Below, piece by piece: positions 28,068-31,806 of a DNA stretch of 64,000 nt. This DNA is from a virus. The stretch covers positions 248,001-312,000 of IMG/VR virus record IMGVR_UViG_3300023179_000009; one strand, 5' to 3'. The notes under the pieces are model-generated. The model was not told the origin of the DNA. It ran no database searches and saw nothing but the letters and a program-made list of their open reading frames with translations. The position numbers were made by a program, and so were the translations under genes. Each line of letters starts with the position of its first letter. Position 1 is the first letter of the stretch.

Positions 28068-29111
28068 GTGGACACTCAAGAAGATTTTGACTTTCTTAAA
28101 GCAATAGAAAACACAGAGCCCGACTTTGTTCGGGCATACCTTGGAGGCATTAAGTCAGATATGTCTAAGACAAATGTTCAACTTACCGTTCGTCAGTGCG
28201 CATCTTTACTTGGCGTTTGCCAGAATACTGTTCTCAACCACATCAAAGCAAACAAATTAAAAGCCAAACTTGTTGAAGGCCAGTGGTTTATACAAGAAAG
28301 CGATTTTGATTCATACAGGTCGTCTATTGTTGTTTCAAAAGGAAAAGATAGTCGTTCGATTATAAGATTTTCTAAAAAATCAAAAGAAACTAAAGTTTCT
28401 TCAAACAAAGAAGAGGTTCATGTCATGGATGAAAAAATTCGTTATCAAAAAGCAACCTCAAGAACTGTCACAGACTTTCTTCACGATTGGCACCGCAACA
28501 AGTCGTCCGGATTTTCCTTGTTGACTATTTGCAGAGACTTTAACCAAGTTTCAGCAAATCCAACCAATGAAAATCAGATGAGCGGGATTTTGTCATCGCT
28601 TAGAAACAAGGGAATAGTTATCCGCAAAGGCAAGGGCATTTACCAAGTTAGCCCTTCAATTGTCGGAGAAATAATTGAAGATCAATCGCATTCAACTACA
28701 GATACCACTCCAGAAACACAGGCAACTTTAATCGACACAGACATTGAGCAAATTCGCACTTCTTTGAAAAAGACTGAGCGAATGGCTGTTGAGGCTTTTA
28801 TAAGAAATCATGCTTCTCCCGGTGTTGATTTTTATTTTACAATCGCTGATGTTGCTCGTGAGTATCCGCATCTTGATCGCAACAAACTCGGCAAAGCTTG
28901 CGTTAACATGTGCCAAACCGGCAAACTTGTAAAGAGCCAAGGTTTGGGAGAATATGTTAAGCAAACTAAAGAAAACCATGTGCAAGAACGAAATCAGAGT
29001 GTCAAGCAACCTTCTACCGATAGCGTTCTTGAAAAAATTAATCGAATCATCAACTCTGACTTTGAAGATAAATTTAAAGAGGAACTTATAAAAGGAATTA
29101 TGCAAAATTAA
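28068..29111 (+). CDS. Helix-turn-helix DNA-binding protein (excisionase/MerR-like head)
   Basis: 347 residues. An N-terminal HTH of the excisionase type (LTVRQCASLLGVCQNTVLNH, then AKLVEGQWFIQESDF) is near residues 40-80. Two winged-helix-like regions seem to follow (ICRDFNQVSANPTNENQMSG ... IVIRKGKGIYQV, and IADVAREYPHLDRNKLGK). The start is GTG at 28068; a later ATG at 28161 would cut off part of the HTH approach. It is the gene immediately left of the Cas12 cassette and may regulate its surroundings (inference). Confidence 0.65.
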   Translation: MDTQEDFDFLKAIENTEPDFVRAYLGGIKSDMSKTNVQLTVRQCASLLGVCQNTVLNHIKANKLKAKLVEGQWFIQESDFDSYRSSIVVSKGKDSRSIIRFSKKSKETKVSSNKEEVHVMDEKIRYQKATSRTVTDFLHDWHRNKSSGFSLLTICRDFNQVSANPTNENQMSGILSSLRNKGIVIRKGKGIYQVSPSIVGEIIEDQSHSTTDTTPETQATLIDTDIEQIRTSLKKTERMAVEAFIRNHASPGVDFYFTIADVAREYPHLDRNKLGKACVNMCQTGKLVKSQGLGEYVKQTKENHVQERNQSVKQPSTDSVLEKINRIINSDFEDKFKEELIKGIMQN

Positions 29112-29155: not shown

Positions 29156-30781
29156 ATGTTAGAACAAGAAGAAAATAATTGTGTTGTTATTAAAGTTCCA
29201 TTGATTTGTAACCAAAAGCAAATTAAATTGCTTAAAAGTAGATTTAATTCTTCTAGAGTTTTTTATAATTCTTGTTTAGCAGAGTGCGAAAGAAGAAGGA
29301 AAATTCTTGTCGTTCATCCTAATCGTATCGAAGCCAATAGAATATACAAAGAATTAAAAGAAAAAGACAAACAAGTTAAAGAAAAAAAAATTACTAGAAG
29401 TTCTTATGACTTTAAAAAGAACAAAGAACTCTATAGTTCTCTTTATCGAAAATCTGAGAGGGAGACGGGTTTTTATTTAAGATCTAGTGCCACAAATGAT
29501 ATGACAAATTCTTTAGAACAATGGGTTTCGAATGTAAGAAATGGAACCAATATTGAAAAAGAGTTGGATAGCCACACCTGTATGACTTTAATGGATCGAG
29601 CATTTAAAGCATCTAAAAGAGTTTTAAATGCTCGATGGGTATTTAATAAGAAAAAAAACACTTACATAAAACCATCGGTTCAGTTTAAGAGTGTAAAAAA
29701 ACCAATCCTTAGCATTTCTAGCAAAAGCCAAAAATCTTCTCTTAAATTTTTATTAGAAAGCAAAACAATTCGGGTTCCTCATGTCGTTTGGACAATTAAC
29801 AAAAAAGCAATATGGCCTATTTTAAATTTGGACCCAATTGATCCTTATCATAACTTTTTAATTGAAAACTACCACAAAGTGGGTCATATTAAATTGTGTC
29901 GTGAAGAAATTAAAGGAAAGTGGGTTTATTCTATGCAGGCTACTTGTAGCATAGATTCAATGAGTAAATTTTATTTGGGAGTTAAACCAAAATATTTAGG
30001 TGAAGGTGTTTGTGGAGTTGATATTGGAGCAAGCGACTTTGCCTTTTCAGCACCGAACCACTCGGAAATTACAAAATTATTTCCGGAGTTTGATTTAGGT
30101 GTTGAGAAAAAGTTAAAGCAACTACACAAACAAAATTCTCGTATGCTCAGACAGAACAACCCAAACAATTTTGAGCCTGATACTTGGGAAAAAAATCCCA
30201 ATGGCAAACTAATTAAGAAATTTGGATCACAAAAAAAGGGTTGCAAAAATTTTATTAGCAAAAGGCACAAAAAAGTGCTACTTCAGATGAAGGAAATTTA
30301 TAGAAAACTCAAAGAAAGTCGTAGCATTTCTCATAAAAAAGCGGCAATTCGCTTACGTTCAAAAGCCGACAATCTAAGAATGGAAGATCTCAACTATTTT
30401 TCGTGGCAAAAAGGCGGCATGGGCAAATCATCCCAAATACGCTCTCCCGGACTATTTAGTAAAACTTTAGAGAACACATTCAAAAAAACCGGCGGTAAGG
30501 TTGAAAAAATTGATCCTTTTAAATCTTGTCTTTCGCAAATTTGTCCCAATTGCGGAAGCAAAAAAAAGAAAGAAAGAAGTCAGGATTGGCACGAGTGCGA
30601 AGAGTGCGGTTACGGTAAGAAATTTCCAGTTCAAAGAGACTTGAATTCTGCTATGCTTGCGTGTACAGTTGATTTGAAAACTCAAACTGTCGATGTGGAA
30701 GAAGCCAAAAAACTTCTTCGGGATAGAGGACCGATCCTGCGGACGACATCGGCTAGTTTTAAAAAAGGTGCGAAGAACTAG
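29156..30781 (+). CDS. Compact Cas12-like (TnpB-related) RNA-guided nuclease
   Basis: 541 residues. A split RuvC nuclease with all expected residues: RuvC-I GVDIGASDFAF (Asp289), RuvC-II LRMEDLNYFSW (Glu410), a zinc ribbon CPNCGS...CEECGY (Cys463, 466, 481, 484), and RuvC-III VQRDLNSAM (Asp495). The N-terminal 280 residues are basic and helical, as in REC/wedge regions of small Cas12 proteins. Size and layout fit hypercompact type V effectors (Cas12f or V-U groups); the subtype cannot be set by eye. A CRISPR array and a candidate tracrRNA follow. No adaptation genes are present. It starts 2 nt after the left direct repeat. A free-standing TnpB is less likely because of the array. Confidence 0.9.
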   Translation: MLEQEENNCVVIKVPLICNQKQIKLLKSRFNSSRVFYNSCLAECERRRKILVVHPNRIEANRIYKELKEKDKQVKEKKITRSSYDFKKNKELYSSLYRKSERETGFYLRSSATNDMTNSLEQWVSNVRNGTNIEKELDSHTCMTLMDRAFKASKRVLNARWVFNKKKNTYIKPSVQFKSVKKPILSISSKSQKSSLKFLLESKTIRVPHVVWTINKKAIWPILNLDPIDPYHNFLIENYHKVGHIKLCREEIKGKWVYSMQATCSIDSMSKFYLGVKPKYLGEGVCGVDIGASDFAFSAPNHSEITKLFPEFDLGVEKKLKQLHKQNSRMLRQNNPNNFEPDTWEKNPNGKLIKKFGSQKKGCKNFISKRHKKVLLQMKEIYRKLKESRSISHKKAAIRLRSKADNLRMEDLNYFSWQKGGMGKSSQIRSPGLFSKTLENTFKKTGGKVEKIDPFKSCLSQICPNCGSKKKKERSQDWHECEECGYGKKFPVQRDLNSAMLACTVDLKTQTVDVEEAKKLLRDRGPILRTTSASFKKGAKN

Positions 30782-30980
30782 TACTCACTCTAATTGAAAA
30801 ATTAGTTTGCCGAAAAATCTACTTTTTAGAAAAACACCTAAAGAGTCAGAGTACCTCGTCCGTGAAACTACGAGCGATTTAGAATGACAGCCCTCATCGG
30901 AATAGTTTTAAATCGTCGTGGTCTCGTCTTTTGTTGCGAGAGGTACGGTGGCGTTAAAAACCGCCGTACCTCTCGTTTTT
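30782..30980 (+). ncRNA. Candidate tracrRNA
   Basis: This 200-nt region lies between the Cas12 stop and the CRISPR leader. CTCGTCTTTTGTT at 30923-30935 complements repeat bases AACAAAAGATGAG over 13 positions (one G-U). A second partial anti-repeat, TGACAGCCCTCATC at 30885-30898, complements the GATGAG...TGTCA part of the repeat. The 5' part folds: GTACTC ACTCT with AGAGT CA GAGTAC, and CTCGT (30855-30859) with ACGAG (30870-30874). It ends at a strong terminator. No separate promoter is clear, so it may be the 3' UTR of the cas mRNA. Expression is not proven. Confidence 0.65.
30937..30980 (+). terminator. Rho-independent terminator of the cas/tracrRNA unit
   Basis: CGAGAGGTACGGTGG pairs with CCGCCGTACCTCTCG (15 bp, one G-U) across a 9-nt loop, and five T follow. 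It begins one base after the 3' anti-repeat. Confidence 0.88.
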
Positions 30981-31073
30981 ACTTAAATACTGTGTTGTCA
31001 ATGATTTACAGAACTCTTATTTTGTTTTTTGATATTTGATGGATCTAAATTTTAACAACCTCTCGCAAAGGTC

Positions 31074-31102
31074 TTGTTTTTTGTTGTGGTTTTTTGTATA
31101 AT
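31074..31102 (+). promoter_or_regulatory. Pre-crRNA promoter in the CRISPR leader
   Basis: TTGTTT (31074-31079), a 17-bp spacer and TATAAT (31097-31102) form a good sigma-70 promoter. The expected start, about 31109, is about 5 nt before the first repeat. The leader between the terminator and the repeat is AT-rich and holds no gene. Confidence 0.75.
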
Positions 31103-31113
31103 TTTAATGTGCT

Positions 31114-31772
31114 ATTGCAGTACTTAAAACAAAAGATGAGTATGTCAAGTGGTCTCTAGGGCATCGTTGGCGTCTCGGTAAACCAAATTGCAGTACTTAA
31201 AACAAAAGATGAGTATGTCAAGAGGGCATCGTTGGCGTCTCGGTAAACCAAATTGCAGTACTTAAAACAAAAGATGAGTATGTCAAGGACATTGAGAAGG
31301 TACTCGGAATCTTGTTCGGGGGATTGCAGTACTTAAAACAAAAGATGAGTATGTCAAGGTGCTGCTCAGGCGTTAGTGGAGGTTTGTTGGTAGCCAATTG
31401 CAGTACTTAAAACAAAAGATGAGTATGTCAAGAATTAGCGGCAGTACGAGCCACCGACCATCAGCAGATTGCAGTACTTAAAACAAAAGATGAGTATGTC
31501 AAGGAAACCCAAGTCCATAGACGCAAGAGGCAAAAACGGATTGCAGTACTTAAAACAAAAGATGAGTATGTCAAGTACCGATGGGCTACCAAAAACATCG
31601 CCAGGGCGGCAAAATTGCAGTACTTAAAACAAAAGATGAGTATGTCAAGATGACCAAGGCAAAAACCCGCCATTGCAGTACTTAAAACAAAAGATGAGTA
31701 TGTCAAGGTCAAGTGGCGTATTATTAGACAACGTGAGTTCTCATTGGATTTCAGTGCTTAAAACAAAAGATG
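31114..31772 (+). CRISPR. CRISPR array: nine 36-bp repeats plus one degenerate terminal repeat
   Basis: Nine identical 36-bp repeats start at 31114, 31187, 31252, 31323, 31397, 31468, 31540, 31614 and 31672. Each begins ATTGCAGTACTTAAAAC and ends GATGAGTATGTCAAG. A tenth at 31748-31772 keeps 23 of its first 25 bases and then becomes the MscL-like gene. Spacers are 37, 29, 35, 38, 35, 36, 38, 22 and 40 nt. Spacer 2 equals the last 29 nt of spacer 1. Spacers 1, 5 and 7 are about 54-57 % GC against an AT-rich phage. The degenerate last repeat and the promoter place the leader on the left, so the crRNA runs on the + strand, the same as cas12. Confidence 0.98.
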
Positions 31773-31806
31773 GAAAAAAATCTTTTACCAAAAGAAGAAC
31801 TAAATC
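31770..31806 (+). repeat. Right 37-bp direct repeat bounding the Cas12-CRISPR cassette
   Basis: Identical to 29118-29154. The final, truncated CRISPR repeat supplies the A of the ATG, so the cassette junction falls exactly at the start codon. Confidence 0.92.

What the first reader, a model, noticed from the sequence alone, without database searches (positions are those of the whole stretch)
30782..30980. Two anti-repeats mark a tracrRNA between cas12 and the array
CTCGTCTTTTGTT (30923-30935) pairs with repeat bases AACAAAAGATGAG (13 positions, one G-U), directly before a 15-bp terminator. TGACAGCCCTCATC (30885-30898) also pairs with the GATGAG...TGTCA half of the repeat. The 5' half folds into two hairpins. 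Both anti-repeats compete for GATGAG, which suggests a switch or one true site. The RNA lies in the 3' UTR of the cas gene, recalling omegaRNA of TnpB.
Basis: seen in the sequence. Interest (0 to 1): 0.8.

Follow-up and report, generated by a model that had tools for sequence, protein, structure and literature searches.

The report
Phage Cas12 tracrRNA, omegaRNA-like fold
A giant virus of bacteria carries a tiny CRISPR system in which a small RNA encoded just after the cutting enzyme probably pairs with the CRISPR repeat in two places at once, much like the guide RNA of the jumping-gene enzyme it seems to come from; a good but not unprecedented example of how CRISPR arose from transposons.

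Summary
The sequence facts are right: a 541-aa TnpB/Cas12-like ORF (29156-30781), a 3'UTR RNA, a strong terminator and nine 36-nt repeats, in a 458.8-kb phage record. Only one of the two anti-repeats stands out. AR2 (30923-30935) pairs with repeat nt 15-27 with probability 0.96 in a co-fold and is among the three best repeat-pairing sites on both strands of the window. They need not compete: AR2 can form the repeat:anti-repeat stem while loop UGACA pairs with UGUCA just before the spacer, as a pseudoknot. That is the published guide-PK-stem layout of TnpB omegaRNA and Cas12f guide RNA. omegaRNAs of related TnpBs end in a (mostly UUUA-looped) hairpin and a short tail ending TCAG before the guide; in Bacillales they carry the same loop:tail pseudoknot. 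Best reading: a tracrRNA that, with the repeat, is a split omegaRNA. The effector fits no named subtype well. A related phage has the empty site. New variant of a known kind. Transcription, pseudoknot and activity are inferred.

The parts
29156..30781 (+). Compact TnpB/Cas12-like effector, 541 aa, RuvC D289/E410/D495 and CxxC...CxxC finger intact
   Evidence: Alignment with TnpBs; Pfam Cas12f1-like_TNB 5.9e-09; NCBIfam guided_TnpB 1.5e-21, below its cut-off; PHROG transposase 2.4e-34; fold closest to ISFba1 TnpB and Cas12f
30782..30980 (+). Predicted tracrRNA (5' end unknown), effector stop to terminator
   Evidence: z -4.1 for 30782-30922; anti-repeat and terminator
30790..30805 (+). Hairpin 1 (6-bp stem, 4-nt loop)
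   Evidence: MFE
30818..30850 (+). Hairpin 2
   Evidence: MFE
30867..30922 (+). Hairpin 3, 18 bp, with AR1 mostly in its apical loop
   Evidence: z -4.7 for 30865-30922; arms over 84% paired, AR1 79% unpaired
30885..30898 (+). AR1 TGACAGCCCTCATC; UGACA (30885-30889) is the proposed pseudoknot partner of UGUCA in the repeat tail
   Evidence: Best tail complement in the RNA, but p 0.067 against loop shuffles; analogous loop:tail helix in Bacillales omegaRNAs
30923..30935 (+). AR2, the anti-repeat (13 bp with repeat nt 15-27)
30937..30980 (+). Intrinsic terminator, 15-bp stem, 9-nt loop, TTTTT
   Evidence: Sequence, fold
31097..31102 (+). TATAAT in the array leader, possible -10 of an array promoter
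   Evidence: Sequence only; not listed by the promoter scan
31114..31747 (+). CRISPR array: nine identical 36-nt repeats, spacers of 22-40 nt
31748..31772 (+). Degenerate, truncated last repeat; its ATG is the mscL start codon
29118..29154 (+). Left copy of a 37-bp direct repeat (5' end of mscL) just before the effector gene
   Evidence: 100% identical to 31770-31806; single copy in L009
31770..31806 (+). Right copy of the 37-bp repeat, start of intact mscL
28068..29111 (+). HTH_17 (excisionase-like) protein gene, also absent from the empty site of the related phage; link to the system unknown
   Evidence: (Pfam HTH_17 5.4e-09)

Best explanation
The 3'UTR of the phage's compact Cas12/TnpB-like gene encodes a tracrRNA. 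The tracrRNA plus one repeat-spacer crRNA rebuilds an omegaRNA-like guide: two 5' hairpins, a long third hairpin, then AR2, which pairs with repeat nt 15-27 to give the stem that is a closed, mostly UUUA-looped hairpin in TnpB omegaRNAs; the last nine repeat bases (UAUGUCAAG) lead into the spacer, and UGUCA in them can pair with UGACA in the loop of hairpin 3 as the pseudoknot. The two anti-repeats would thus act together (R:AR2 stem and R:AR1 pseudoknot). Shown by computation: positions, AR2 pairing, hairpin 3, terminator, intact RuvC residues, TnpB kinship, empty site in a related phage. Inferred: transcription, pseudoknot, processing of the duplex (perhaps by host RNase III, since none was found in the phage record), RNA-guided DNA cutting, and descent from an omegaRNA by splitting.
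For: AR2 pairing probability 0.96-0.98, AR1 0.000; AR2 with flanks unmatched in 2000 shuffles; among the three best repeat-pairing loci on both strands of 64 kb, and directly before a terminator, between effector and array. Hairpin 3 z -4.7. The effector's nearest relatives are IS605 TnpBs of about 500 aa; 26 distinct omegaRNA ends in this set have a GAACC-type flank, a hairpin with mostly a TTTA loop and a short tail ending TCAG before the guide, comparable with the repeat end GATGAG-TATGTCAAG before the spacer. In eight Bacillales omegaRNAs a loop TGACAAC pairs with tail GTTGTCA in 98% of cells, with one compensatory change. Published structures describe the guide-PK-stem layout and omegaRNA as a natural sgRNA joined by a UUUA tetraloop, resembling R:AR1 and R:AR2 of Cas12f (PMC10097598). 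Catalytic residues intact.
Against: No close relative with the same RNA was found, so there is no covariation for the phage RNA itself. The 5-bp pseudoknot is not significant alone (p 0.067). A direct HMM test of tracr arm plus repeat end against omegaRNA ends was not convincing. The AR2 core alone is only modestly unusual. P0001 sits on a very long branch (2.05) and is not nested in the TnpB clade. No spacer targets were found. No tracrRNA promoter is evident.
Confidence: 0.78

Rival explanations
1. The two anti-repeats are alternative sites that compete for GATGAG and switch the RNA between states.
For: Both segments contain a complement of GATGAG.
Against: AR1 lies mostly in an 18-bp-closed loop and gets zero pairing probability with the repeat when AR2 is present. 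AR1 alone is at chance level. The known layout uses both segments together.
Confidence: 0.06
2. The effector needs only crRNA, and the 3'UTR RNA is just a structured terminator region or a regulator.
For: Some phage Cas12s (such as Cas12j) work without tracrRNA (own knowledge). The AR2 core is AT-rich and modestly significant.
Against: The repeat forms no hairpin of its own in the co-folds, unlike most tracr-free systems (own knowledge). AR2 with flanks is unmatched in shuffles and is placed between effector and array.
Confidence: 0.1
3. The gene is a TnpB with a one-piece omegaRNA; the array beside it belongs to something else. A hairpin followed by GTCAG at 30818-30848 could be the omegaRNA end.
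For: Closest relatives are TnpBs; hairpin 2 runs into GTCAG.
Against: The GTCAG follows hairpin 2 without the 8-9-nt tail and GAACC flank of the relatives. AR2, array and effector are adjacent, in one orientation, and jointly absent from the related phage. No TnpA-like gene was seen next to it among the ORFs checked.
Confidence: 0.06

Closest known systems
IS605-family TnpB and its omegaRNA (ISDra2 TnpB; about 500-aa cyanobacterial and Bacillales TnpBs)
   Same: Protein family, RuvC and zinc-finger residues, scaffold RNA in the 3'UTR, guide-PK-stem layout, TCA(A)G before the guide
   Different: Here the scaffold ends in a terminator and the guide-bearing part is in CRISPR repeats; no TnpA seen adjacent; at most 30% identity
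Type V-F Cas12f with dual guide RNA (Un1Cas12f1, AsCas12f)
   Same: Size, fold (TM normalised to target 0.61-0.69 for CnCas12f1 and AsCas12f), tracrRNA with two repeat-contacting segments, compact locus
   Different: Only partial matches to Cas12f profiles (about 43 bits, against 185 bits for the L049 protein); dimer use and PAM unknown
TranC (LaTranC, PDB 9jfq), TnpB-to-Cas12 intermediates
   Same: TnpB-derived effector and, from my own knowledge, the idea of omegaRNA split into tracrRNA and crRNA
   Different: Only distant fold and profile similarity; the TranC paper was not in the library
TnpB-like effectors beside CRISPR arrays in phages and megaphages (PMC12607003; about 50 independent TnpB-to-CRISPR events, PMC12669027)
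   Same: Same kind of event in the same kind of genome
   Different: In the passages read, those papers do not analyse the tracrRNA layout of such a locus

Membership tests
Type V CRISPR-Cas (class 2) | Single RuvC effector next to a CRISPR array | tested here: met
Type V CRISPR-Cas (class 2) | RNA-guided DNA interference | not testable with these tools
   Needs experiment; no spacer targets found
Subtype V-F (Cas12f) | Effector of about 400-700 aa with RuvC DED and CxxC..CxxC TNB domain | tested here: met
Subtype V-F (Cas12f) | Sequence membership by subtype profile over most of its length | tested here: not met
   PADLOC Cas12f only 43 bits over residues 331-507 against 185 bits for the L049 protein; TnpB profile is better (1.5e-21)
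Subtype V-F (Cas12f) | tracrRNA with R:AR1 (pseudoknot) and R:AR2 stem | tested here: inconclusive
   R:AR2 supported; pseudoknot possible, p 0.067
Subtype V-F (Cas12f) | Works as an asymmetric dimer | not testable with these tools
   Only a monomer model was made
Subtype V-N (Cas12n, former V-U4) | Sequence or fold membership | tested here: not met
   Top PADLOC hit Cas12u4, but partial, 44 bits; RdCas12n ranks 38th by fold
IS605 TnpB element | One-piece omegaRNA ending in TCAG/TCAAG at the guide, downstream of the ORF | tested here: not met
   Terminator follows the scaffold; TCAAG before guides lies in the repeats
IS605 TnpB element | Membership in the TnpB protein family | tested here: inconclusive
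   guided_TnpB 77 bits, cut-off 100; long branch beside the TnpB clade
Adaptation-competent CRISPR-Cas | cas1 in the same genome | tested here: not met
   No Cas1 in the 458.8-kb record

The most novel reading that the evidence does not exclude
An independent, phage-borne conversion of TnpB into a Cas12 outside the named subtypes, in which the tracrRNA and CRISPR repeat are a split omegaRNA that keeps both the stem and the loop:tail pseudoknot.
Probability: 0.4. Interest if true: 0.55.

Novelty: new variant of a known kind. Interest (0 to 1): 0.42.

Why it matters
It would be a natural, very compact test case for the idea that dual-guide Cas12 systems arose by splitting an omegaRNA (proposed in PMC10097598). 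The model makes direct predictions for each half of the pairing. The kind of event is already known to have happened about 50 times (PMC12669027), so it adds an example rather than a principle. The phage carries it without cas1, with foreign-looking spacers (mostly 50-57% GC, window 35.6%), in a site that is empty in a related phage.

Tried and rejected
Close relatives of the effector in viral contigs and of the repeat: none. The wide alignment A1 could not seed a search. An earlier idea, that AR1 is the split 5' arm of the terminal omegaRNA hairpin (TTTAGAA...CCC), was dropped: those bases sit in hairpin 3 and the HMM test failed. A third possible anti-repeat in the leader (31013-31028, 14 of 16) and a 13-position run at 31073-31085 with three G-U pairs lie after the terminator and were set aside as AT-rich chance pairings. 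Spacer targets in phages, plasmids, IMG/VR (one spacer, exact) and the phage itself: none. No Rfam family for the RNA. Reports on TranC, Cas12n and the TnpB/Cas12 PNAS survey were not held or not found.

Full report
Setting. The window is 248001-312000 of a 458,813-base virus record, a jumbo phage by size and gene content. The finding lies between a 541-aa ORF (29156-30781) and an array of nine identical 36-nt repeats, ATTGCAGTACTTAAAACAAAAGATGAGTATGTCAAG, starting at 31114, plus a degenerate truncated last repeat at 31748-31772.

The effector. It carries the Cas12f1-like TNB domain and matches the NCBIfam TnpB family at 1.5e-21, below the curated cut-off, and a PHROG transposase family at 2.4e-34. 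PADLOC Cas12u4 and Cas12f profiles match only partly, at about 44 bits; a phage TnpB/Cas12f-like protein next to another array (L049) gets 185 bits. RuvC D289, E410 and D495 are invariant or nearly so in an alignment with 36 relatives. All close hits are TnpB-type proteins, the best of them about 500 aa long, at 22-34% identity. In a tree it has a branch of 2.05 and lies beside, not inside, this TnpB set. A model (pLDDT 79.5) is closest to ISFba1 TnpB and to Cas12f structures. I read it as a TnpB-derived compact Cas12 of no named subtype.

The observation. AR2 is real: 13 positions, one G-U. With its flanks the duplex reaches -25.4 kcal/mol (shuffles -13.7 +/- 2.7, 0 of 500), or -24.5 without most of the terminator (0 of 2000). 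The core alone is weaker (-16.9, reached by 7.7% of shuffles), because the repeat is AT-rich; and some of the flanking pairs use bases that also belong to hairpin 3 and to the terminator. In a scan of both strands outside the array, the AR2 site is one of the three best loci (others at 2886 and 35241), and it is the one in the expected place. AR1 alone is ordinary: 4.9% of windows do as well.

What the RNA looks like. The fold has two 5' hairpins and a long third one, 30867-30922, with z = -4.7. AR1 lies mostly in its apical loop (79% unpaired), and AR2 follows the hairpin directly (78% unpaired), then the terminator. In co-folds AR2 pairs with the repeat with probability 0.96-0.98, AR1 with 0.000. 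Nested folding cannot show pseudoknots, so this excludes AR1 as a rival stem, not a loop contact.

Why both segments may matter. In the ISDra2 TnpB structure the omegaRNA has a pseudoknot between the bases just before the guide and an upstream segment, and a stem 4; these resemble R:AR1 and R:AR2 of Cas12f, and the omegaRNA is called a natural sgRNA with crRNA-like and tracrRNA-like parts joined by a UUUA tetraloop (PMC10097598). Twenty-six distinct omegaRNA ends of TnpBs related to this effector have that hairpin, mostly with a TTTA loop, and a short tail ending in TCAG. In eight Bacillales omegaRNAs a hairpin loop TGACAAC pairs with the tail GTTGTCA: 98.1% of cells paired, one compensatory change in L119. 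In the phage the same places are taken by AR2:repeat 15-27 (stem), UAUGUCAAG (nine-base tail) and loop UGACA with tail UGUCA. The 5-bp contact has p = 0.067 by itself, so it is proposed by analogy, not shown.

Surroundings. A related phage contig (L009, about 87% identical upstream, 81-88% downstream) lacks the HTH gene, the effector and the array and has a single copy of the 37 bp that flank the effector-array unit here. The duplicated 37 bp are the start of mscL, and the last repeat ends in the mscL start codon. No cas1 and no RNase III domain were found in the phage record, so spacer uptake and RNA processing would need the host. Spacers are mostly 50-57% GC (last one 42%) against 35.6% for the window, and no targets were found.

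Novelty. About 50 independent TnpB-to-CRISPR events have been inferred (PMC12669027), and TnpB-like effectors beside arrays in viral genomes are reported (PMC12607003). This locus is therefore a new variant of a known kind. Its value is that the two anti-repeats map onto the two contacts expected for a split omegaRNA, which makes the splitting idea testable by point mutations. A direct sequence test of omegaRNA descent did not succeed, and the lineage is too divergent for covariation, so descent stays an inference.

Noticed in passing
L042:5733-6000 and L043:6372-6740: Two viral contigs carry TnpBs of the related clade (sister in the tree, support 94), each followed by a small array with hairpin repeats (about 29-30 nt, spacing 62) and a shared 3'UTR RNA with a compensatory change (CTGTGG/CCACAG against CTGTAG/CTACAG): a possible second CRISPR capture in the clade.
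   Followed up: partly
L049:553-2360: Phage TnpB/Cas12f-like gene followed by seven repeats with 66-68 spacing; strong Cas12f profile match.
   Followed up: no
window:29118-29154 and 31770-31806: Perfect 37-bp direct repeat of the mscL start flanks the effector-array unit; single copy in L009. The mechanism of this insertion is unexplained.
   Followed up: partly
window:31150-31186 and 31223-31251: Spacer 2 is identical to the last 29 nt of spacer 1, i.e. shortened by eight bases at its 5' (repeat-proximal) end; spacer 8 is only 22 nt.
   Followed up: no
G000:C1 25888, 189875, 232766, 456664 (loci L051-L054): Four further TnpB-like genes of about 390-420 aa in the same phage; that of L051 ends in an omegaRNA-like hairpin and TAGTTCAC.
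   Followed up: partly
window:28068-29111: HTH_17/excisionase-like protein gene between the upstream gene and the effector, absent from the related phage's site and from that contig.
   Followed up: partly
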